DNA of 64,000 nt. Origin: Capsulimonadaceae bacterium. Its GTDB lineage: Bacteria > Armatimonadota > Armatimonadia > Armatimonadales > Capsulimonadaceae. Below are positions 14,599 through 29,392 of this stretch, piece after piece (within the stretch, counting starts at the first letter, position 1; each line of letters starts with the position of its first letter). The stretch covers positions 186,001-250,000 of the forward strand of contig JARLGU010000011.1 of NCBI GenBank assembly GCA_031292625.1, written 5' to 3'. The notes under the pieces were generated by a model that was not told where the DNA came from, did not search any database, and saw only the letters and a program-made list of their open reading frames with translations. Both the position numbers and the translations under genes were made by a program.

Positions 14599-16215
14599 TC
14601 ACCATCTTTGCCGCGGCGTGTTCGCGTTTGTGCGCCATCCATCGAAGACTTGCAGAGTTGGACACTCGTAAGAGCTGACGGGAAGCTTGCAGTCGACCCG
14701 CGCATAACCGACATTTTGCGCGTGAGACGCAAGAAACGCTCCCGTCTGACCAGTCCAGTACACTCCGTCGTTGCTTACGGGACCGACGACGATCACTCTT
14801 CCCCCCCGCTTCAACGCAGCGGCACAGTGCTCGAATACAGGTTCCATCGTGTCTTTCTTCCCCAAGAGGCGTTTAACCAGATCATACCGATGATACTTGT
14901 GGAACGGAATTGGCGGCATTGTATCCCAAGCCGCCGTGCCATGGTAATACCTTGAAAACGTTACCGCATGCCACACGTCCAGAAGAACGTAATCGCGCGG
15001 CGTCGCAGCCCTGCCGATCATGCTTGCAATGAGGTCAATGTTCGTCTGCCGCACCGTTATCGTGGACAGGACGGGGGCAACAAACACGGCAGCATAAAGC
15101 AACGCAAAGATAGGCGCAATGATCCGGTACTTCTTCCGGTTGAGCGCCGGCATGAGCAGACTGTCGACACTCAGAGCAAGCACCGTCATAAGATCGAGAT
15201 AGTACCAGGGCTGCGTCGTATATTTCAGCGCAAGCAAGAAGCCAAAATAGAAGGGAACGGCGAAGACTAGATTGACGAGCGAGAAGGCGGTAAAAGACAA
15301 ATCCGGTTGGAGCGCATGCTTGCGCCGCAACAGGAGCGACAAGACTCCCACGATCAAAACGATCGTCGCGAGACCTATCCAGACCGAAAAGACGATCGTC
15401 GATGGCGTCCCCACGGCATCGTGGAACTTCTGCAGAAGCCATCCCAGCGTCACGTCGCTCGTTACCATGTCGCTCCACTTATGGAGCCTCCTGAAGACGA
15501 CAACATAGGGAAGGAGCGAGAGAGCAGCAAGCGCGGCAGGTACGACAATATACACGAGCTTGCAAAGCGGACCACGCATCACGAGTACCGCGGCGCATCC
15601 GCCCGCAACAAGCGCGGCCGTAAGGAAGCTATTGTAATAGAGCGTCTGAACCGAGATAATCGCCGCTGCCGATGCCCACGCGCAGTTCCGCGCATTCGGA
15701 CAGCGCGCATTTCGCCAAAACGTCCAAAACATGACGGTGTAGGCAAGCATTCCCCAACCATAGGCGCGGCTCGAACCTCCCCAGTGAATTACGGACGGAT
15801 TCAGTCCGAGCAAAACCGTGGAAAATACAGGCCATCGGATTGGCGTATCGCGAGCGATCAGGGCGAGTACGATCACGGTCAAGGAGGTCGCGGCAAGCCC
15901 GAACAGACGATACGCAAAGTCGGAGTCGCCGCTCAAATTGTGGACACAGCGAATGGCAAGCATCCACAAAATCGGAAATGAGTCATATTCAAGATGATTC
16001 CAAACATCTCTAATCGACGGTAGGGTCGAAAGCGCCACGCTATTGGCTTCATCACGCCACAACGCGCCCGCGTTCGTCGCGAAAACCCACCGCAGCCACA
16101 ACGCGATGCACCCGGCGATCAGCCAGGCGATAAACGCCGGATCCTTCGCCGCCGGCATCTCGGGCGGTTCGCTCGACACCGGCGCATCCTCGTCATGGGA
16201 GACCGTAGGCATCAT
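14599..16215 (-). CDS. GT-C glycosyltransferase (PMT/ArnT-like membrane protein)
   Basis: A 538-residue polytopic membrane protein. After a short acidic cytosolic N-terminus comes the first membrane helix and the loop GALWRDEANSVAL; an Asp-Glu pair in the first periplasmic loop is the catalytic mark of GT-C enzymes that use polyprenyl-phosphate sugars. About 10 hydrophobic segments follow (for example LTVIVLALIA and TIVLIVGVLSLLL) and a soluble C-terminal part. It starts 35 bp after the GT2-methyltransferase gene on the same strand, and that enzyme would make its donor. The acceptor is unknown. Confidence 0.8.
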   Translation of the reverse strand: MMPTVSHDEDAPVSSEPPEMPAAKDPAFIAWLIAGCIALWLRWVFATNAGALWRDEANSVALSTLPSIRDVWNHLEYDSFPILWMLAIRCVHNLSGDSDFAYRLFGLAATSLTVIVLALIARDTPIRWPVFSTVLLGLNPSVIHWGGSSRAYGWGMLAYTVMFWTFWRNARCPNARNCAWASAAAIISVQTLYYNSFLTAALVAGGCAAVLVMRGPLCKLVYIVVPAALAALSLLPYVVVFRRLHKWSDMVTSDVTLGWLLQKFHDAVGTPSTIVFSVWIGLATIVLIVGVLSLLLRRKHALQPDLSFTAFSLVNLVFAVPFYFGFLLALKYTTQPWYYLDLMTVLALSVDSLLMPALNRKKYRIIAPIFALLYAAVFVAPVLSTITVRQTNIDLIASMIGRAATPRDYVLLDVWHAVTFSRYYHGTAAWDTMPPIPFHKYHRYDLVKRLLGKKDTMEPVFEHCAAALKRGGRVIVVGPVSNDGVYWTGQTGAFLASHAQNVGYARVDCKLPVSSYECPTLQVFDGWRTNANTPRQRW

Positions 16216-16250
16216 CGTGTAATATCCTCATTCGTCCGGCATCGAGCCAG

Positions 16251-17717
16251 CTAATCGATCACCTTTCCTACTACAACGGCTTGAACAAAAAGGTCCCGAA
16301 AATCAAACGTGTATGAGTCCATCTGGAAGCAAGCATTCGCAAGGATCGCCGCCGCTTCATTCCGGCCGCGCGTCAAGGAAATCTCATCGGGATGAAGTTG
16401 CGGCGCGCGCTCACCAAAGATGCGGTGCAAGATCCGGTGGACCAGGCCAAGGACCAGAACGCTAGAAGCTCGATAGTGCGGCCAGAATATCACGACCTTC
16501 CCCCCCGGCTTCAGAACCCGGCGCAACTCGAGCAGCATTCCGTGGATCTCTTCATGAGTAAAGTGCTCGACAACTCCAAGGTTGTACGCGCCATCAAATG
16601 CGCCGTCAGGAAACGGCAAATGGAAGACGTCCGCGTGCTCGACGGCGCTCGCGGCAGGGTTGAAATGAACGTAAAGGTCCAGGGCCGAAGTTGAAATATC
16701 GACAGCCGTCACTCGGTTTTCCAACGTTACGGTCATATCCGCTTGTCCGCTGCCGCACCCGGCATGAAGCAGGTTCGCCCCACGTTTAAACTCCCGCCTA
16801 ATCGCTCGCGTCAGTTGAGGCCTGATGATCGTATTCCGATAAATGGCTGCAATAAAGCCATAGACTCGTCTAGACGTATTCCCCTTCGTATCCCAATAAG
16901 CGTTCCAATTTTGGGGGTCTACAAGCCTATCGTCTTGCGGTCCGCGCCTAACGGCAAGACGATAAGCCTGTGGCCTTATGCGCGCCGCAACATAGAGCTT
17001 AAATAGAAATCGAACGCTTTTGGAGATCTCGCCCAAGTCCATCTTCGAGTGCCCGTATGTCCGGCTCGGCAGATCAATCGGGACCTCCGAAACAACAAAG
17101 GAATTGTTGACTATCGTGAACAGACTTTCGAAAAAGAATGCGTACCCGTTGGCTCGCACGAGGTCAAAGAGCTCGCTTGGAATCGTCTCCAGATTGTAGA
17201 CTCGAAATGCCCCGGTCGTATCCTGCGGAAGTTTAAGCAACGCCGTCGTGAGGAAATGCGCTGTCTTTGTGAGAAACCTGCGCACGATGTTCCACTCTCG
17301 CAAACTCTCACTTCGCAAGTAGCGCGACCCGACCACAAGATCGGCGCCGGGCAAGGCTTCAAACAACCTGGGTACATCCGATGGCTGGTGCGTAAAATCG
17401 CAATCCATCGTCACAAGCATCCCGTAGGCGTGCTCGTACGCGTAGCGAATGCCTGCAATGTGCGCCCGGCCAATGCCCTGCTTGCCAGGCCGGTGCATCA
17501 CGCGAACGGACGAATGTTTTGCGGAGAGCCTGTCGAGGATCTCTCCGGTCCCATCCGGGGAATTGTCATCAATGAACAGGATATCGGCATTGAGCGAGAG
17601 AGCCAGCAACTCGGCGCACATCGGCTCGACATTTTCAGCTTCGTTGTATGTCGGAATGACAATCAACGTCTTTGTCGATTGTTTTGGGGTTGCGTTAGTT
17701 ATGGAAGCTATCCTCAC
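16251..17717 (-). CDS. Polyprenol-phosphate sugar synthase (GT2) fused to a class I methyltransferase
   Basis: The 488-residue product has two domains. Residues 15-240 match dolichol/polyprenol-phosphate-mannose synthase: VIPTYNEAENV, DDNSPDGTGEIL, MDCDFTHQP and GSRYLR. There is no C-terminal membrane pair. Residues about 280-485 form a SAM methyltransferase: LLHAGCGSGQADM (about 317), AVDIS, GAYNLGVVEHF and LRRVLKPGGKVVIFWP. Fusion of these is unusual. The start is GTG 17717. The next gene encodes a GT-C enzyme expected to use the product, so the methyltransferase may modify the same glycan or lipid. Confidence 0.88.
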   Translation of the reverse strand: MRIASITNATPKQSTKTLIVIPTYNEAENVEPMCAELLALSLNADILFIDDNSPDGTGEILDRLSAKHSSVRVMHRPGKQGIGRAHIAGIRYAYEHAYGMLVTMDCDFTHQPSDVPRLFEALPGADLVVGSRYLRSESLREWNIVRRFLTKTAHFLTTALLKLPQDTTGAFRVYNLETIPSELFDLVRANGYAFFFESLFTIVNNSFVVSEVPIDLPSRTYGHSKMDLGEISKSVRFLFKLYVAARIRPQAYRLAVRRGPQDDRLVDPQNWNAYWDTKGNTSRRVYGFIAAIYRNTIIRPQLTRAIRREFKRGANLLHAGCGSGQADMTVTLENRVTAVDISTSALDLYVHFNPAASAVEHADVFHLPFPDGAFDGAYNLGVVEHFTHEEIHGMLLELRRVLKPGGKVVIFWPHYRASSVLVLGLVHRILHRIFGERAPQLHPDEISLTRGRNEAAAILANACFQMDSYTFDFRDLFVQAVVVGKVID

Positions 17718-18202: not shown

Positions 18203-18667
18203 TTAGTCGAGGCATCCAAGCATCGACGCGATAAAATTGATCTGACCTTCGTGATAAATCATGTTCCAGTAGGGATACGCAATAACCTGTTCCACGGTCA
18301 GCGCGCCCCACGGCATTTCGATCATGTTGCCGAGGTCGGCGTCGGGCACGTCCCCGACCGCGGCTAGCAAGATCGGCAGGTTCTTGTCGAACAGAGCCCG
18401 GCAGGCGACGGGATCAGCCGCCAATTCGAGTCGAGTCTTCTGGTACGCCTCCATACCGCCCGGCATCGTGAAGCTGCGTTCGCGAATTGTCTGCACCGAG
18501 TAGCCGTTCAGAATAGCGCATTCGGACAGTTGGTCATTGGCGCTGCGCGCCTTGTCCATTGCGCTCCAACCGCGCTTGTCCTCGGGAAGGCGTTCGTACG
18601 CCGCAATCAGGTCTTCGGCGGCCTTAGGGGTCGCTCTAACGAGAAAGTCTTGCAGAGAGTGTGGCAT
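18203..18667 (-). CDS. DinB-like four-helix protein
   Basis: A 154-residue protein with DinB/DfsB-like features: an N-terminal helix FLVRATPKAAEDLIAAYERLPEDKRGW, a central ECAILNGY, and near the C-terminus YPYWNMIYHEGQINFIASML, where His is the usual metal-ligand position of the fold. These proteins are often thiol-dependent transferases or of unknown function. ATG 18667 is preferred because AAGGAAA lies about 8 nt upstream; an upstream in-frame start at 18715 lacks support. Confidence 0.75.
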   Translation of the reverse strand: MPHSLQDFLVRATPKAAEDLIAAYERLPEDKRGWSAMDKARSANDQLSECAILNGYSVQTIRERSFTMPGGMEAYQKTRLELAADPVACRALFDKNLPILLAAVGDVPDADLGNMIEMPWGALTVEQVIAYPYWNMIYHEGQINFIASMLGCLD

Positions 18668-18823
18668 AGAGATGTTTTCCTTCGCGATTATGACGGGATG
18701 GTCTCGCCGCGCCAAAGCGGCATCAGCAAGAACCGTGATTTGACTGCGCGGAGCCGATTCTCCGCGATACTACCTCGCCTGGAGGTAGATCCTGTTGGCG
18801 GCGAGCAGGCACGATTACCGCGC

Positions 18824-19567
18824 CTAAGCTACGTCGCCCGTAAGCAGCCGTCCGCATGGCAGGAATCCTGCCTTCTGCAACGTCCGCCGCGACGGTTGAT
18901 TGTCCGGGTTGCATCTTGCGGCCGGCAACTTTCCAGCCTCGTAGCAGAGTCTCTTGACCTCCTGCACAAGGTAGCTGCCATAGCCCTGGCGGCGCGATTG
19001 CTCGCTCACCTCCATGTAGATATCCCCATAAGGCGGGTTATAGTGATACAGAGCCCCAGCGGTGGCGACGATATCGCCGTCAACATCGATGCACCAGTCG
19101 CCTACAGGCTCGCTTTGGTGGTCGAAGATCGATGCAGCATCGCGAGGGCCCGTCTTTCGCAAGCTTCCTCGCGGGCAAGCGAGATGGGTCGTGACCGCAT
19201 CGTTGAAAAGAATGGCGCTGTCGACAATGTTCTCCGCGCAATCGTAAAGCATCGTCAGCATCAACGGCATATTCGTTTGCGCCTGGATATGCGTTGCCTC
19301 GCTTACGGCGAGAAGTTCCTGGAACATTGGCAAGGCCGCATCACGCAGCTGGGGTACGGTGTAGAACTCGATCAAATGCCCTGGCGAGTATTTGTTTCGC
19401 ACGGCCCCATATCCGGCAAGACGAGCGTCCGCCAGGATGAGATAGGGATCCGCCAGTCCACGTTGCAACATTGAATCATGAACGATCTGGCAGCCTGCCT
19501 CCTGCCGGTAGAGTTCCCGGAGCGGTTCAACATCAGCGTATTCAACCTTATGCACCGTGATGTCCAT
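18824..19567 (-). CDS. GNAT family N-acetyltransferase
   Basis: A 247-residue protein whose C-terminal half carries the acetyl-CoA loop: YMEVSEQSRRQGYGSYLVQEVKRLCYEAG followed by CNPDNQPSRRTLQKAGF, the classic motif A/B pattern (RxxGxG). The N-terminal half (about 1-130) is a diverged GNAT-like half, giving a two-lobed protein. The substrate cannot be read. It lies 36 bp after a K+ channel gene on the same strand and may be cotranscribed. Confidence 0.84.
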   Translation of the reverse strand: MDITVHKVEYADVEPLRELYRQEAGCQIVHDSMLQRGLADPYLILADARLAGYGAVRNKYSPGHLIEFYTVPQLRDAALPMFQELLAVSEATHIQAQTNMPLMLTMLYDCAENIVDSAILFNDAVTTHLACPRGSLRKTGPRDAASIFDHQSEPVGDWCIDVDGDIVATAGALYHYNPPYGDIYMEVSEQSRRQGYGSYLVQEVKRLCYEAGKLPAARCNPDNQPSRRTLQKAGFLPCGRLLTGDVA

Positions 19568-19603
19568 AATTGTCGATCCTGCGATGCCGGCTGCGGATAA
19601 TGG

Positions 19604-20737
19604 CTACGACGAGTGAGGATGGAGCACCCAGTCATCGTCCGCTGCGCTGTTAGTCTCCCACGCGCTCGCCTCCCAGTTGTCGAGAACCGGCAGCGATATC
19701 TGCCACGGCGGAAGATCCACCATGAGGTAGTCAGCCAAGACGACTGCGTACGGCTCGTACAGAGCTCGCAGGCGAGTAAGCTCGTCGATACAGTCCGGCC
19801 TTTCGAACGTGACATCCTCTTGGATGAGCCCAGACGTCAGTTGGTCAAACCCGGCGGCATCCAATCGTGGGAAGCGCGGCGCGCACGGCGGCGTGTTCAA
19901 GATGAGCGAAAGGTCGATCAGCGCGTGCCGGCACATGGCGAACGTCAGCCGGGCCTGGCGGTCGGCGGAACCGCCAACGCCCGCAATCACGAGAGCCGAC
20001 GTGTCCAGTATGCAGGTAAGGGACGCCAACCAGGACTGCCGGTCGTGTTGCGAGCGGTAAAACGAGAGCGCAGGATAGGAGAGATGACTTTCGAGCAATT
20101 CGGCAGCCCACTTCTCCCAATCCGCGAGCAGCGCTTCCAGCGTGCAAGCCCGCGTGACCGGCAACGCATGTCGCTTGAGCAACTCGGATGCCGTCGGCGG
20201 AGATCCTGCGCGCGCATCAAGCAGCGAAATCGCCACCTCGCGCCGGGAAAAGCCCTGATAGAGCACGGGCAGGTAACCGATCACGATCGCCAGGAATCCG
20301 AAGCCGACCCCGGCCTCGGTAACGCTAATCGCGCGCGCGACCGGGCTCAGCGGCGAGACATCGCCATATCCAAGGGTGAAGAGCGTCGTTCCGCTCAGGT
20401 AGATGTCAGTCCAAAAACCCGGATTATCCTCGGGGGCGTGAAGGTGCGAACCAGCGCTCCATTGCAGAATTCCAAAACCAAACACCAACAGGATCGCCCA
20501 AACAGCCATCAATAGGATTAGCGAAAGCGGCCCAAACGCCCAAAGATGCGCCTCCCGCTGATTAGGTTTTCGCAGACGCCGCGCGATCCAGCGCCAACCG
20601 GACCATATGACGGTGTAGAAGAACGCGGTCAAACGAAGCGATGAATTGGCGCTGCGCGGAAGCACGAGCGTCTCGAAGGCATCGCGCAGCACGAACGCAA
20701 GCAACGCGAATCCGATTATCAGTGCAAATAAGTGCAT
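19604..20737 (-). CDS. Two-transmembrane-type potassium channel protein
   Basis: The 377-residue product has hydrophobic segments at about 3-20 and 70-95, then a pore helix and selectivity filter TTLFTLGYGDVSP (about 117-128), followed by a last inner helix (GFGFLAIVIGYLPVLYQGF). TLGYGD is a K+-selective filter. The C-terminal about 220 residues are soluble and helical, with no recognised RCK or cyclic-nucleotide motif, so gating is unknown. Confidence 0.85.
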   Translation of the reverse strand: MHLFALIIGFALLAFVLRDAFETLVLPRSANSSLRLTAFFYTVIWSGWRWIARRLRKPNQREAHLWAFGPLSLILLMAVWAILLVFGFGILQWSAGSHLHAPEDNPGFWTDIYLSGTTLFTLGYGDVSPLSPVARAISVTEAGVGFGFLAIVIGYLPVLYQGFSRREVAISLLDARAGSPPTASELLKRHALPVTRACTLEALLADWEKWAAELLESHLSYPALSFYRSQHDRQSWLASLTCILDTSALVIAGVGGSADRQARLTFAMCRHALIDLSLILNTPPCAPRFPRLDAAGFDQLTSGLIQEDVTFERPDCIDELTRLRALYEPYAVVLADYLMVDLPPWQISLPVLDNWEASAWETNSAADDDWVLHPHSS

Positions 20738-20888: not shown

Positions 20889-22331
20889 TCAATCGTAAAC
20901 CGCACAAAGCCTCCAGTTCGTTCCCCGGTGATGCAGTTCATACAGGCCATCGGGCTCGGTGAGCACGCGATAGCACATCATTTCAGAGAGCTCGCCCCGT
21001 AACCAATCGGCTTCACGCCAGGAATTCTGGATCCATCGGACCTCATAGCAAACAGGCGTCACAGACGGCCTTCCGCCGATTGCCGCGCGATAGATGCGCA
21101 CCGGGGCGCCGGATGGATCGGTCACCACTTCGACGGGTTCGTTTTTCACCTGGCCGAGCCGGTAAGTCCACAGATGGATTCGCTGCGCGCGACGGAGCAA
21201 CCTCCCAGGAGTGACCGCCGCAATGCCAAACTTTCCCTTCAAGTGCGCTAACGTCGCAGTGAGCTTCTCGCGCTGCTCATATGTCAGCCCGTTCTCATCC
21301 TCGGAGAGCAACGCAAGCTGCGCGCTCGCACCGGATGTCAGGCGCGATGCCTTTAGCGTGATACCCAGAACCGGCCGATCGACCATCAAACGGCCCAGCA
21401 GGCGGCGCGATGCACGCTCCAGCACGATCGAATCGCGAGCGGGAGATGCTAGCGGCTCCTGCCCGGCGATGCTCTCACCGCCTTCCAAACACACGGTGAG
21501 GGCCAACGTCCGGCAGTAGGTCCGCTCAAGGCTCAGCCTTGCGGCGATCTTGTGCGCGCAAATCTCCAGCGCCTGATGCAAGAGATGCTCGTCCCCCACC
21601 TCGTCGTCGAACGCAATTGCCTGCTCGATGCCTTTCGGCGGCCAGATCGCCTTAACCGGGTCCCCGTCGTCTCCGGCCGCTAGCCGGCGCAACAGCGCTC
21701 CGCATTCCTTGAACTGGCGATCAATCTCCGCGGGCGGCAGGCCCATGACATCGCCCAACGTCCCCACCCCGATCCGCAATGCCCGCGCACGCACTTTGGC
21801 AGGCAGAACGGCAAGCGCGGCCAGGGCAACCGGAGCGATCAACGCCTCCTCCCGCGCCCCGGCTCCGGCCACGACGACTCCTTCCGCCGCCCACCGGCTG
21901 CGCGCGGCCTGCCGGGCAACCAACTTGCTCCGCCCCAACCCCGCACGCACCTCTGTTTTCGATCTATCCGCCAGCGACAGGGCAAGCGTCTGAAGCCGTT
22001 GGGGAATATCCGTCCCGGTCATCCAGGCATAAACCAGCTCCGGCGAGAGCGGTTCAACCACTCCGCTCTCCGATGCCACCCCATCCCAAACCGCCTCCGC
22101 CGAATCGGTATAAGCCGCGAGGTCATAAGGCAGCACGATCAATCCCTGGCAGAGGCTCTTCGCGAAAACAATCGCCTGCCCCGGGCGAACGCCATACGCG
22201 CGCGCCTCGGACGACACCGCCCGTAGCAAATCGTCCTCCCCCGCCAAGGCAATCGGCTGCTCCGCGAGGTGCGGCAGACGAGACCGCTCGCAGGCGATGC
22301 CAATTCCATCGAGCCAAAAGCACGCGACCAC
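20889..22331 (-). CDS. ImuB-like, catalytically degenerate Y-family polymerase relative
   Basis: The 480-residue protein has the Y-family frame (YGVRPGQAIVFAKSLCQ, then VRAGLGRSKLVARQAARS as little-finger approach, thumb LPAKVRARALRIGVGTLGD) but lacks the metal-binding acids: where active enzymes have SIDE, this has VVEPLSPELVYAW. The C-terminal domain (RWIQNSWREADWLRGEL to LCAVYD) resembles the tail of mycobacterial ImuB. ImuB bridges ImuC (DnaE2) to the beta clamp in SOS mutagenesis. No imuA or dnaE2 is in this window. Start GTG 22331 is chosen because GGAGG (22337-22341) is 5 nt upstream; TTG 22346 is the alternative. A LexA-type box lies just upstream. Confidence 0.75.
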   Translation of the reverse strand: MVACFWLDGIGIACERSRLPHLAEQPIALAGEDDLLRAVSSEARAYGVRPGQAIVFAKSLCQGLIVLPYDLAAYTDSAEAVWDGVASESGVVEPLSPELVYAWMTGTDIPQRLQTLALSLADRSKTEVRAGLGRSKLVARQAARSRWAAEGVVVAGAGAREEALIAPVALAALAVLPAKVRARALRIGVGTLGDVMGLPPAEIDRQFKECGALLRRLAAGDDGDPVKAIWPPKGIEQAIAFDDEVGDEHLLHQALEICAHKIAARLSLERTYCRTLALTVCLEGGESIAGQEPLASPARDSIVLERASRRLLGRLMVDRPVLGITLKASRLTSGASAQLALLSEDENGLTYEQREKLTATLAHLKGKFGIAAVTPGRLLRRAQRIHLWTYRLGQVKNEPVEVVTDPSGAPVRIYRAAIGGRPSVTPVCYEVRWIQNSWREADWLRGELSEMMCYRVLTEPDGLYELHHRGTNWRLCAVYD

Positions 22332-22336
22332 CACGC

Positions 22337-22341
22337 CCTCC
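22337..22341 (-). promoter_or_regulatory. Ribosome binding site deciding the ImuB-like start
   Basis: GGAGG on the minus strand, 5 nt before GTG 22331. It falls inside the coding frame if TTG 22346 were used, which argues for the shorter protein. Confidence 0.6.
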
Positions 22342-22346
22342 AACAA

Positions 22347-24325: not shown

Positions 24326-25507
24326 CTATGCAACCCAGACGAAGTTGATATGCCGGATGAGCATGAGCACCTGGAGCATAAGGAGACCGCCGACGAGTAT
24401 GGCAAAAGCTGGCGTCTTACGCCCCTTCGTAAAGGCAATCGCCGTCACCAACATCACGGGAAAATCGAGCGCGCTGAACCGCAAATACGACATGAAGTGA
24501 CCGGCAACAGCCGGCAGGATCCCCATGGAGATCGCGTAGGAAAACAGCATTCTATCCAATTTGTAGATAAACGGCAGCGCGGCCAAACACCATAAAAACG
24601 CCAGGCGGTCGAACGGCGAATCCGTAAAGGAGAAGAACGGGTGAACATTTCCAAACGATTCGACGAATCCGCGTAAGTCGACGAAGTTTCTGAGCGAGTG
24701 TGTCCCCGTAAACATGTTTGCAACAGCCAACTGAACAAACGGATTGCCGGTCATTACCCACATGGTCGCGAGATATATCCCAAACCCGGCCACCGTCGCA
24801 AGAAGCAGTCCCGCCTCCAATTTACGCCGATTGCGTGCGAACTCCAGAAGGAAAAAAGGAATCCAAAACAGCCCAGTCGGACGAGTCAGTACGGAGAGAA
24901 GGGAGGCCGCGCCAGCGGCGGCGCCTCTGCGCTCCCGCACGGAGAACAGGATTGCGGCGCTCAGGAGAAGGAAGAGAGACTCGCTGTACGGCACATTAAA
25001 AAATAGCGCCCCCGGAACGGCAAGCACCAGCGCCAAAGTCTTCTCGGCAGCCGCTCTGCCGAACTCCTTCTGCAAATAGCAGAACAGCAGAGCTAGACCG
25101 AGTACCGAGAACACGTTCGTCAGAACGAGCGCGCTGACAAGGTGATTTCCCCCGGTCAGCGGGCTGAGCGCTCGAATAAAGAGCGGCCAGAGCGGATAGA
25201 ATGCATCCACCTGCGAACGCTGCCTGTAGCCGCTCTCGCTAATCGCCAGATAAGGCTGAGCGTCCCACGTTTCAAAATATCGCGCCAATGGAGGAGAAGG
25301 AACAGCTGTCCGGTGGAAATTCCCGTAAAAGCCGCCGGCATTGTAAATATCGGGCAGCAAAAGGATCAAGAGAACAATAAGCAGAGCGTAGACGATCTTC
25401 CAGACGGTTAGCCAGAGCGCAGCGTTCGCGAAGCTCCGCAGGTAGTCTCTCTCCCCCTCGCCAGCATGAGCTATCGAGCCGGCGACGTCATCGTTTGGAA
25501 TAGACAT
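24326..25507 (-). CDS. PIG-V-like membrane mannosyltransferase
   Basis: A 393-residue polytopic protein with about 9 hydrophobic segments. The first large loop has ARYFETWDAQPYLAISESGY and then AFYPLWPLFIRALSP, the pattern of PIG-V/GPI-mannosyltransferase-2-like GT-C proteins, in which Asp of the WD motif is important. VPYSESLFLLLSAA and LTRPTGLFWIPFF follow. Such enzymes take mannose from polyprenyl-phosphate mannose. The start ATG 25507 is chosen because the upstream frame back to 25642 is Arg-rich and unlike the family. It ends 8 bp from the convergent transglutaminase gene. Confidence 0.82.
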   Translation of the reverse strand: MSIPNDDVAGSIAHAGEGERDYLRSFANAALWLTVWKIVYALLIVLLILLLPDIYNAGGFYGNFHRTAVPSPPLARYFETWDAQPYLAISESGYRQRSQVDAFYPLWPLFIRALSPLTGGNHLVSALVLTNVFSVLGLALLFCYLQKEFGRAAAEKTLALVLAVPGALFFNVPYSESLFLLLSAAILFSVRERRGAAAGAASLLSVLTRPTGLFWIPFFLLEFARNRRKLEAGLLLATVAGFGIYLATMWVMTGNPFVQLAVANMFTGTHSLRNFVDLRGFVESFGNVHPFFSFTDSPFDRLAFLWCLAALPFIYKLDRMLFSYAISMGILPAVAGHFMSYLRFSALDFPVMLVTAIAFTKGRKTPAFAILVGGLLMLQVLMLIRHINFVWVA

Positions 25508-25833
25508 AGAGTGCCAACAGGAACGTCTGGCGAACCAAGCCGCGGCTGCGGATCGAACATTCTCACCATTGCGCGCCCCAGTCCGGATCGACGTTCCCAA
25601 GCCGAATTGCGCCGGCTTTCCCCTTCGCTGAATAAAACGCAATAACGAATTCGCCGTATTTCCGGCCTATTCCTCTCGCATTTGCAGCGAGACGCCAAAC
25701 TCGTCGGCACTGGTGATTGACAGGAAATCACGTGAGAAGCAATCGCCGACGACGGAACTGCGCATACGGCCGATCTTACGCACGATGCGAAGCAGTCCGT
25801 AGATCTTAGCAAGGGAAATTAGGGAAGGAGGTT

Positions 25834-27444: not shown

Positions 27445-28129
27445 CGGTTGTTTGGTCCTCCCGATCCCGCCTTGTGACGCGCGATCAAGTCCACGAACAT
27501 CCTTTAAGAAAAAATGCCCCGGCGCCGATGAAAACCGGTGCGCTTCCTGGGGTGTAAGTCCCCTCAGTGTAAGGACTAGCAATCCGCACTGCTTCGAGTC
27601 ATGGCGTTGTATCCGTAAGGATACCGCGCAAGCGTTGACAGAAGAACTGATGAGCAGAGTATTGAGCCGCGTAAGTTCAGTTCGGAGGGTCCAACCTGTG
27701 CATTTAGGCGAAGACAACATGTTGGGGCGCGTCAACCGCGAGCGTTCCGACGCCTCCGCGTGGTCGGAGACCTCTCGCACGTCAGGAAGGAGCGCACGCG
27801 GGAATCGGGAGGTCCCGAAGCCATCCATAACAGCTTGCTGCACCGGATCGCATGAGGAATCCATTGGAGTAATCTCATGATGAACGGCTTCGGGAAGTCA
27901 GACCGACCCATAGTACCGAAGAAGGAGGGGAACAAGATGACGTCAGGCGAGCCCCAGGCGATAAATGCCACAACATCCTCTGCCGGCATCGCGGACTCTC
28001 CGGAGGGAAGGGGAAGGACCAAGGGAAATGCGCTTAAGAACGACGGATGCCGGGTTCAGGACCGGGAAAGTCCGCAACAGGTTCTGGAGCGCATACGCAT
28101 GATCCCAAATCAGGATCGCAACACAGTTT

Positions 28130-29392
28130 ATGTCGATCTGGCACATGGTCTACGATGAGGCGCGCCTGCATAGGGCGTACTGTCTGACCAAGGAAGCTAG
28201 TGCTGGGATGGACGGCGAAACCAAAGAGCACTACGGGGAGAACCTCGTGGAGAACCTTGCCGATCTTTCGGCACGGCTCAAGAGAGGCGCCTACCACGCG
28301 CGTCCGGTCAGGCGGGTCTATATCCCCAAGCCGGACGGTCGCCAACGGCCCCTCGGCATTCCGACGCTGGAGGACAAGCTCGTTCAGCGCGCAACATGCG
28401 AGGTGCTGGAAGCGATTTACGAGGTAGACTTCCACGAGTTCTCTTTTGGGTTCCGGCCCGGACGCAATCAACACCAGGCATTGGACACCCTTGCCCTGGC
28501 TATTGAGCGACGTCCTATGAACTGGGTGCTTGACGCCGATATTCGCGGCTTCTTCGACAACATTGACCATGAATGGCTGATGCGGTTTGTGGAAGTGCGG
28601 ATTAAGGACAAGCGCGTGTTGCGCCATATTCGCAAATGGTTGCTGGCCGGAGTGCTTGAAGATGGCGTGGTTCACGCGGCGGACTATGGGACGCCCCAGG
28701 GCGGAAGCATCAGTCCCCTTCTGGCCAACATCTATCTGCACTACGCGTTCGACAACTGGGCTATTCTCTGGCAACGCCGGAAAGCCCGTGGGCACATGCA
28801 GATTGTTCGCTATGCGGACGATATTGTCGTGTGCTTTCAGCACCGCGAAGACGCCGAGAGGTTTCTCGCGGAAATGCAAGAACGTCTTGGCCGGTTCCAT
28901 TTGGAGCTGAATATGGAAAAGACGCGGCTGATCGAGTTCGGGCGTCGAGCTCGACAAAATCGCCGTGATCGAGGTGACAGGCCACCGGAAACGTTTGACT
29001 TTTTGGGTCTCACGCATTGCTGCGGAACGCTCAAGAAAGGACGGTTTGCGGTGGTACGGCGAACAGCGCGCAAGAAACTGCGCGCGAAGCTGGCAGAGAT
29101 CGGGAAGGAACTGCGTAAGCGGATGCACGACCCGATCCCTCTGGTCGGCAAATGGCTCAGTCAGGTTCTAAAAGGGCACTACCAGTACTACGGCGTCCCT
29201 CTTAACTTGACCAGGTTACATACCTTCCGTTATCAGATCACCCGTCGCTGGAAAAGCGCGTTGGCGCGTCGAAGCGATAAGGCGAAAGATAATTGGGAAC
29301 GAATGAGCTACTTGGCAAAACGGTACCTGCCGATGCCGCGCCTTTGTCACTCCTATCCGAGCCCGCGACCAGGCGTCATCTACCCGAGGTAG
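28130..29392 (+). CDS. ltrA: Group II intron reverse transcriptase/maturase
   Basis: A 420-residue intron-encoded protein. RT blocks are in order: VYIPKPDGRQRPLGIPTLEDKLVQ, FSFGFRPGRNQHQAL, VLDADIRGFFDNIDHEWLM, TPQGGSISPLLANIYLH, VRYADDIVV (catalytic Asp pair) and FDFLGLTH. The maturase X domain follows (PLVGKWLSQVLKGHYQYYGVP). No HNH endonuclease is present, so mobility would rely on reverse splicing at single-stranded or replication-fork DNA. The frame is intact, so the element may still be active. Confidence 0.93.
   Translation: MSIWHMVYDEARLHRAYCLTKEASAGMDGETKEHYGENLVENLADLSARLKRGAYHARPVRRVYIPKPDGRQRPLGIPTLEDKLVQRATCEVLEAIYEVDFHEFSFGFRPGRNQHQALDTLALAIERRPMNWVLDADIRGFFDNIDHEWLMRFVEVRIKDKRVLRHIRKWLLAGVLEDGVVHAADYGTPQGGSISPLLANIYLHYAFDNWAILWQRRKARGHMQIVRYADDIVVCFQHREDAERFLAEMQERLGRFHLELNMEKTRLIEFGRRARQNRRDRGDRPPETFDFLGLTHCCGTLKKGRFAVVRRTARKKLRAKLAEIGKELRKRMHDPIPLVGKWLSQVLKGHYQYYGVPLNLTRLHTFRYQITRRWKSALARRSDKAKDNWERMSYLAKRYLPMPRLCHSYPSPRPGVIYPR

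What the first reader, a model, noticed from the sequence alone, without database searches (positions are those of the whole stretch)
14599..17717. GT2-methyltransferase fusion paired with a GT-C enzyme
A polyprenol-phosphate sugar synthase is fused to a SAM methyltransferase and lies 35 bp ahead of a GT-C glycosyltransferase of the class that uses such donors. A PIG-V-like GT-C gene is 7 kb away. Together they suggest a pathway for adding a (possibly methylated) sugar to a protein or lipid. I know of no characterised enzyme with this exact fusion.
Basis: partly seen in the sequence, partly recalled or inferred. Interest (0 to 1): 0.5.

Follow-up and report, generated by a model that had tools for sequence, protein, structure and literature searches.

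The report
Fused enzyme for methylated lipid-linked sugar
A bacterium carries one protein that probably both loads a sugar onto a membrane lipid and methylates it, beside a membrane enzyme that probably passes that sugar on across the membrane; related gene sets are scattered over several distant phyla and appear tied to an unusual branched sugar.

Summary
One 488-aa ORF (16251-17717, -) joins a DPM1-like GT2 polyprenyl-phosphate sugar synthase to a class I methyltransferase (MT); a GT-C transferase starts 35 bp later (14599-16215, -). It is no frameshift: the fusion recurs in 16 other loci from six named phyla, and as two adjacent genes in 4 more. It is rare; of 101 genomes of the host phylum only this one showed it.

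New here: the GT2-MT genes lie with a sugar 3-C-methyltransferase in 16 of 20 loci and a GDP-mannose-dehydratase-like SDR in 15 of 20, against 0 of 63 other GT2 loci. In two loci SDR, GT2 and MT are one ORF. This genome keeps C-methyltransferase, SDR and a true GDP-mannose 4,6-dehydratase 51 kb away on the same contig. The GT-C has a clear GT-C fold but no Pfam family; it follows the fusion here and in 6 of the 20.

Best reading: a GDP-3-C-methyl-6-deoxyhexose is loaded on polyprenyl phosphate by the GT2, O-methylated by the fused MT and passed outward by the GT-C. Substrate, methylated position and acceptor are inferred. The PIG-V-like gene shows no link. New variant of a known kind.

The parts
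16251..17717 (-). GT2-methyltransferase fusion ORF, 488 aa, GTG start
   Evidence: fused homologues in 16 other loci
16938..17717 (-). GT2 half (residues 1-260): DPM1-like polyprenyl-phosphate sugar synthase; DCD motif at residues 105-107, R-T-Y-G-x-S-K-M at 219-226
   Evidence: PF00535; best PDB match dolichyl-phosphate mannose synthase 5mlz by sequence (9.7e-26) and by fold (1.9e-15); motifs conserved
16254..16928 (-). Methyltransferase half (residues 264-488): class I SAM methyltransferase, LHAGCGSG at 317-324, invariant E384-H385
   Evidence: PF08241; invariant columns; fold matches include sugar O-methyltransferases AtmM and RebM among many other methyltransferases
14599..16215 (-). GT-C glycosyltransferase, 538 aa, W-R-D-E in first outer loop (residues 53-56), soluble C-terminal part
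   Evidence: no Pfam GT family
16216..16250 (-). 35-bp gap between fusion stop and GT-C start, consistent with one transcript
   Evidence: no promoter-like or terminator-like site found in this gap (consensus scan only)

Best explanation
The pair makes and uses a methylated, lipid-linked sugar. (1) Inferred: GDP-mannose is converted to GDP-4-keto-6-deoxymannose by the true GMD, C-methylated at C3 by the mycarose-3-C-methyltransferase-like enzyme, and reduced at C4 by the GMD-like SDR, giving a GDP-3-C-methyl-6-deoxyhexose (evalose- or virenose-like). In this genome these three genes sit 51 kb from the fusion on the same contig. (2) Well supported by family: the GT2 half moves the sugar from its nucleotide to polyprenyl phosphate on the inner face of the membrane. 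(3) Inferred: the fused methyltransferase puts an O-methyl group on that same sugar, while it is lipid-linked or just before transfer. (4) Well supported by fold, acceptor unknown: after flipping, the GT-C takes the sugar from polyprenyl phosphate and adds it to a glycan, lipid or protein outside the cytoplasm.
For: GT2 is nearest to dolichyl-phosphate mannose synthase by sequence and fold. MT motif I is invariant in 15 sequences. GT-C fold (best Z 24.9), WRDE invariant in 9. Neighbours: C-methyltransferase in 10 of 14 GT2-MT loci of the first scan, SDR in 11 of 14, against 0 of 64 other GT2 loci at 1e-10 (one of the 64, L063, proved to be a divergent GT2-MT, leaving 63; flanks up to 6 kb, some shorter). 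Independent set found with the MT alone, 6 strong loci: GT2 adjacent in 6 of 6, C-methyltransferase in 6 of 6, SDR in 4 of 6. SDR-GT2-MT in one ORF of 796-797 aa in L032 and L035. Own genome has one PF08484 protein, beside the SDR and a GMD over the TIGR01472 cut-off (586 vs 415 bits). The C-methyltransferase matches D-mycarose 3-C-methyltransferase (2e-62). The SDR keeps YxxxK but lacks the GMD glutamate in 12 of 12. A polytopic protein follows the GT2-MT in 14 of 21 loci, own one included. L063 joins a GT2 to an MT that matched neither of my two MT query sequences at 1e-10, and a PMT-like GT-C follows at once.
Against: No substrate, product or acceptor was observed. In this genome the sugar genes are not next to the fusion but 51 kb away, beside a GT4 that may use the sugar instead. 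L039 and L040 (Rhodospirillales) show the fusion without C-methyltransferase or SDR on the DNA held, and L063 has neither. L042 has C-methyltransferase, SDR and GT2 but no MT, so O-methylation is not needed for every user of the sugar. The reductase role of the SDR is not shown. The MT superfamily also methylates many things other than sugars. The window's GT-C family follows the fusion in only 7 of 21 loci, own one included, and in 6 of 21 the next ORF is not polytopic (one more locus ends there).
Confidence: 0.55

Rival explanations
1. The fusion acts on plain mannose (GDP-mannose), giving polyprenyl-phosphate O-methylmannose; the link with the C-methyl sugar genes in other phyla does not hold here.
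For: Best solved GT2 relatives are mannose synthases; in this genome the sugar genes are 51 kb away and adjoin a GT4; L039, L040 and L063 show GT2-MT without C-methyltransferase or SDR.
Against: Of 101 genomes only this one shows the fusion. Of 61 of them 8 have any PF08484 protein, and the three others that I compared are distant from this type (29-31% against 56% identity to the L033 enzyme). Its GT2 falls inside the clade whose members mostly sit with these genes.
Confidence: 0.25
2. The methyltransferase works on another target, for example the growing glycan end as a chain stopper, and the fusion merely keeps two neighbouring genes together.
For: GT2 and MT are separate adjacent genes in L043, L045, L046 and L140, so fusion is not essential; WbdD (title and start of abstract seen in a listing) is a methyltransferase that sets glycan chain length.
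Against: GT2 lies directly at the MT in all 6 loci that were found with the MT alone; of the 20 loci 16 are fused; the SDR joins the same chain in two; a divergent GT2-MT fusion is followed by a PMT-like GT-C.
Confidence: 0.15
3. Assembly or frameshift artefact joining two genes, or a decayed transplant without function.
For: GC of the ORF is low (0.541, third lowest of 49), so the pair may be foreign.
Against: Sixteen other fused loci from many assemblies; catalytic motifs intact; two GT-C copies without stops in the genome.
Confidence: 0.03

Closest known systems
Dolichyl-/polyprenyl-phosphate sugar synthases (P. furiosus-type DPMS 5mlz; GtrB; ArnC)
   Same: GT2 fold, acidic DxD-type motif, donor to lipid phosphate chemistry expected
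   Different: No transmembrane segment by a simple hydropathy scan at the usual threshold, and a methyltransferase domain at the C terminus
GT-C transferases using polyprenyl-linked donors (PMT, ArnT, AftB, ALG9/12)
   Same: Fold, polytopic N-terminal part, acidic motif in first outer loop
   Different: No Pfam GT family matches any of 9 members
AglP and the methylated dolichol-linked glycans of haloarchaea (passages of PMC4335974 read)
   Same: [quoted passage not shown] in Halobacterium salinarum failure to methylate blocked protein glycosylation
   Different: Separate enzyme that acts on an oligosaccharide (uronic acid or terminal glucose); no fusion to a DPM-like GT2 mentioned in the passages seen
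Virenose pathway proposed for Coxiella burnetii (passages of PMC3539893 and PMC3204966 read) and D-evalose (passages of PMC12961483)
   Same: GMD plus TylCIII-like C-methyltransferase plus a GDP-sugar SDR
   Different: There the SDR is a fucose-synthase type; here a GMD-like one without the catalytic glutamate; no GT2-MT was mentioned in the passages seen
Sugar O-methyltransferases RebM and AtmM (their function partly recalled; AtmM is called D-glucose O-methyltransferase in the PDB)
   Same: Among the methyltransferase matches by fold and sequence (RebM)
   Different: Act on finished glycosides (recalled); about 20% identical in the fold alignment

Membership tests
DPM1-like polyprenyl-phosphate sugar synthase (GT2) | Glycos_transf_2 domain and nearest solved relative a polyprenyl-phosphate sugar synthase | tested here: met
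DPM1-like polyprenyl-phosphate sugar synthase (GT2) | DxD-type metal motif conserved | tested here: met
   D105-C106-D107 at least 90% conserved in 12 rows
DPM1-like polyprenyl-phosphate sugar synthase (GT2) | Uses polyprenyl phosphate as acceptor | not testable with these tools
   needs an enzyme assay
Class I SAM-dependent methyltransferase (Methyltransf_11) | Pfam match over cut-off and SAM-binding motif I | tested here: met
   63.7 bits against 21.2; LHAGCGSG invariant in 15 rows
Class I SAM-dependent methyltransferase (Methyltransf_11) | Methyl acceptor is a sugar hydroxyl | not testable with these tools
   inferred from gene order and the fusion
GT-C glycosyltransferase | GT-C membrane fold | tested here: met
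   AlphaFold pTM 0.84; Z 24.9 Pmt4, 22.2 ArnT; Foldseek rows 1-39 read as GT-C enzymes or complexes holding one
GT-C glycosyltransferase | Acidic residue(s) in the first extracytoplasmic loop | tested here: met
   W53-R54-D55-E56 invariant in 9 of 9; topology by hydropathy only
Named Pfam GT-C families (PMT, PMT_2, STT3 and others) | Match to the family profile | tested here: not met
   no family for P0002 and no GT family for any of 9 members at E<=1
PIG-V (for 24326-25642) | Match to the PIG-V profile | tested here: not met
   no Pfam family at E<=1
GDP-3-C-methyl-6-deoxyhexose pathway (virenose/evalose type) | GDP-mannose 4,6-dehydratase | tested here: met
   L117:11280-12362, TIGR01472 586 bits against cut-off 415
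GDP-3-C-methyl-6-deoxyhexose pathway (virenose/evalose type) | Sugar 3-C-methyltransferase | tested here: met
   L117:9758-11086, PF08421 and PF08484; D-mycarose 3-C-methyltransferase 2e-62; activity not tested
GDP-3-C-methyl-6-deoxyhexose pathway (virenose/evalose type) | 4-ketoreductase | tested here: inconclusive
   GMD-like SDR keeps YxxxK, lacks the GMD glutamate in 12 of 12; best solved match is a GMD (1rpn, 7e-52), weaker match to GDP-6-deoxy-D-lyxo-4-hexulose reductase 2pk3 (5.6e-21)
GDP-3-C-methyl-6-deoxyhexose pathway (virenose/evalose type) | Same gene cluster as the fusion in this genome | tested here: not met
   51 kb apart on contig C34

The most novel reading that the evidence does not exclude
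An undescribed route to an O-methylated, 3-C-methylated 6-deoxy sugar carried on polyprenyl monophosphate: C-methyltransferase, SDR, GT2, O-methyltransferase and an unclassified GT-C form one production line, in places welded into a three-domain SDR-GT2-MT protein, and the line has moved between distant phyla. The fused methyltransferase acts as a licence: only the methylated lipid-linked sugar is accepted for flipping or by the GT-C.
Probability: 0.3. Interest if true: 0.65.

Novelty: new variant of a known kind. Interest (0 to 1): 0.45.

Why it matters
The precedents for sugar methylation on the lipid carrier that I saw are haloarchaeal and use separate enzymes; in Halobacterium that methylation appears to be needed for delivery of the glycan. 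A protein that charges the carrier and methylates the same sugar would give a compact, testable system for asking whether methylation controls flipping or GT-C recognition. It also names candidate genes for 3-C-methyl envelope sugars in phyla whose surface glycans are little known, and a GT-C family without a Pfam entry.

Tried and rejected
Frameshift artefact: rejected by 16 other fused loci. PIG-V-like gene as part of the system: no Pfam match, absent in 60 of 61 genomes at 1e-15, no hit at 1e-8 in 57 loci. Viral carriage: one scan of viral contigs with the MT alignment gave 11 pattern matches, none confirmed; of the matching records 0 of 216 plasmids and 0 of 28 phages cover 80% of the query in one place. 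The Fusobacterium paper that held two of the searched phrases (PMC9239216) lists two separate genes in a table (one passage). A Bacteroidota order sample found nothing (0 of 314), but its centre genome G112 itself has no MT of this type, so it says little. One single fusion event: the trees need about 3-4 changes between fused and split states and most inner branches are not strongly supported, so the number of fusions is open. Base composition as proof of transfer: only mildly low. L143, a weak MT hit (144.9 bits), has a separate distant GT2 beside it and no C-methyltransferase or SDR; I left it out of the count of 20 loci. L044 has a GT2 of this type without MT or C-methyltransferase and only weak SDR hits, and L042 has C-methyltransferase, SDR and GT2 without MT; both are in neither the 14 nor the 64. 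L063 was among the 64 controls and later proved a divergent GT2-MT fusion; I therefore quote 63. In the GT2 trees 7 of the 64 control loci and 15 of the 29 host-phylum loci were used, and L041 and L142 were left out as cut. An earlier count gave 11 of 14 for both C-methyltransferase and SDR; the correct numbers, 10 and 11 of 14, are.
Full report
OBSERVATION. The ORF at 16251-17717 (-) encodes 488 aa without a stop. Pfam finds Glycos_transf_2 at residues 18-156 and Methyltransf_11 at 316-409. The ORF at 14599-16215 (-) encodes 538 aa and starts 35 bp after the stop of the first. The next gene downstream, on the other strand, reads as ribosomal protein L7/L12 (by eye); none of the three upstream neighbours scanned (18203-20737) matched a glycan family.

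WHAT THE PARTS ARE. The GT2 half is nearest to the dolichyl-phosphate mannose synthase of known structure, by sequence (9.7e-26) and by fold (1.9e-15; model pLDDT 85.7, pTM 0.81). The methyltransferase half has an intact SAM motif, and its fold and sequence matches include the sugar O-methyltransferases AtmM and RebM among many others. The third protein has no match in Pfam or NCBIfam at E<=1, and none of nine family members matches a GT family. Its model is nevertheless a clear GT-C: the structural comparison is led by Pmt4, oligosaccharyltransferases and ArnT (Z 24.9, up to 23.8, 22.2), and W-R-D-E in the first outer loop is invariant in nine of nine.

DISTRIBUTION. Among this genome and 100 relatives, 57 of 101 match the query at 1e-20, but every listed match other than the window's own ends by residue 261: the GT2 without the fusion. 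The GT-C family at full score is found in this genome alone of the 101 (two copies, 50% identical); two other genomes give weak matches (47 and 43 bits). A scan of genome contigs gave 191 relatives, of which the best 80 were kept; 14 of the 80 have this methyltransferase: 11 fused (L031-L041; L041 is cut by its contig end) and 3 with two adjacent genes (L043, L045, L046). Searches with the methyltransferase alignment A2 at 1e-30 matched in 1 of 288 genomes (phylum of L031), 8 of 213 (order of L035), 2 of 278 (order of L037, one of them weak), 2 of 265 (phylum of L036) and 0 of 314 (order of L042); seven of these thirteen rows (L031 twice, L032, L033, L035, L036, L037) were known already. They added six strong loci in five genomes, L137-L142: five fused, one split (L140). 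So, outside the window, 20 loci: 16 fused, 4 split. The named fused ones are Verrucomicrobiota, Planctomycetota, Omnitrophota, Acidobacteriota, Nitrospinota and Rhodospirillales (Pseudomonadota).

NEIGHBOURS. In the 14 loci of the first scan the C-methyltransferase is present in 10 and the SDR in 11; the misses are L039 and L040 (3.5 and 1.8 kb of upstream DNA), L041 (contig starts inside the fusion) and, for the C-methyltransferase, L036 (contig starts inside the SDR). In L037 they lie 2-5 kb downstream on the other strand. None of the 64 other GT2 loci L047-L110 has either, nor this methyltransferase, at 1e-10; one of them, L063, is a divergent GT2-MT fusion, leaving 63 controls. The 29 host-phylum GT2 loci L002-L030, with about 1.5 kb of flank, have none either. 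In the six loci found with the methyltransferase alone, the C-methyltransferase is present in 6 and the SDR in 4, twice on the opposite strand. Totals: C-methyltransferase 16 of 20, SDR 15 of 20. L042 has C-methyltransferase, SDR, GT2 and GMD without the methyltransferase; L044 has the GT2 without it and only weak SDR hits. In L032 and L035 the SDR, GT2 and MT are one ORF of 796 and 797 aa. The window's GT-C family follows the fusion in L031-L035 and L041 (L031 holds a second copy 3 kb on) and was found in no other of the 16 genomes examined. Other polytopic proteins follow in L037, L039, L040, L043 (cut by its contig end), L045, L139 and L140; the next ORF is not polytopic in L036, L038, L046, L138, L141 and L142, and L137 ends there (hydropathy scan). 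I scanned two of these other polytopic proteins, of L040 and L140; neither matches a Pfam family at 0.1.

THIS GENOME. The window is contig C34:186001-250000. The only PF08484 protein of the genome lies on the same contig, next to the SDR and a GMD: SDR at C34:254799-255767, C-methyltransferase 255757-257085, GMD 257279-258361, with a GT4 at 253642-254802. The SDR is 51 kb from the fusion. The GMD is over the curated cut-off, the SDR far below it (182 of 415 bits). In 12 of 12 SDRs the glutamate of the GMD motif is replaced by H (9), L (2) or M (1), while YxxxK is kept; a reductase role fits but is not shown. The role of that glutamate is from PMC3539893 (passages).

ORIGIN. The GT2 halves of the GT2-MT loci, with L042, form one clade against 7 other GT2s (100/99.9) and against 15 host-phylum plus 7 others (SH-aLRT 100, quick tree). 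With the absence from 100 relatives this suggests horizontal arrival; the low GC of the fusion ORF (0.541, third lowest of 49) agrees mildly. Fused and split forms interchange about 3-4 times on the trees, with many weak branches.

MECHANISM. Shown here by sequence and fold: a carrier-charging GT2, a SAM enzyme in the same chain, a GT-C. Inferred: that both domains act on one sugar, that this sugar is a 3-C-methyl-6-deoxyhexose from GDP-mannose, and that the GT-C uses the product. L063 (an Elusimicrobium MAG) supports the general logic: its GT2-MT protein aligns with the window protein over residues 15-413 at only 29%, its methyltransferase part matched neither of my two MT query sequences at 1e-10, and a PMT-like GT-C follows at once (weak Pfam match, 0.0011, below cut-off), without the C-methyl sugar genes. 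Methylation of glycans at the lipid-linked stage is known in haloarchaea; in Halobacterium salinarum its failure blocked protein glycosylation (passages of PMC4335974).

LITERATURE. Nine searches of the open library were made. Five of them (21, 22, 69, 73, 85) aimed at a GT2-MT fusion and their listings, 2, 1, 0, 1 and 0 papers, showed none on it by title and abstract start; I opened one. Subscription papers and preprints are not held, so this is not proof of absence.

Noticed in passing
window 27555-27773 (+) and 28130-29392 (+): Group II intron RNA match (RF02005, 164 bits) followed by a reverse transcriptase ORF of 420 aa (RVT_1, 1e-40).
   Followed up: partly
window 24326-25642 (-): Polytopic protein that resembles PIG-V by eye (recalled W-D-x-x-x-Y loop) but matches no Pfam family; among 61 genomes only this one has it at 1e-15.
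   Followed up: partly
L118:5161-6879 (-), genome contig C15: Second copy of the GT-C, 50% identical, near a GT2 and a B12-binding radical SAM protein, without the methyltransferase fusion.
   Followed up: partly
L032:825-3215 and L035:5056-7449: SDR-GT2-methyltransferase in one ORF of 796-797 aa, a three-enzyme fusion in two Verrucomicrobiota MAGs.
   Followed up: partly
L063:5992-8705 (Elusimicrobium minutum MAG): Divergent GT2-methyltransferase fusion that neither MT query matched at 1e-10, followed by a PMT-like GT-C overlapping it by 16 bp.
   Followed up: partly
window 20889-22346 (-): Y-family DNA polymerase-like protein (IMS and IMS_C).
   Followed up: no
window 19604-20737 (-): Ion_trans_2 channel protein with a long C-terminal part.
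   Followed up: no
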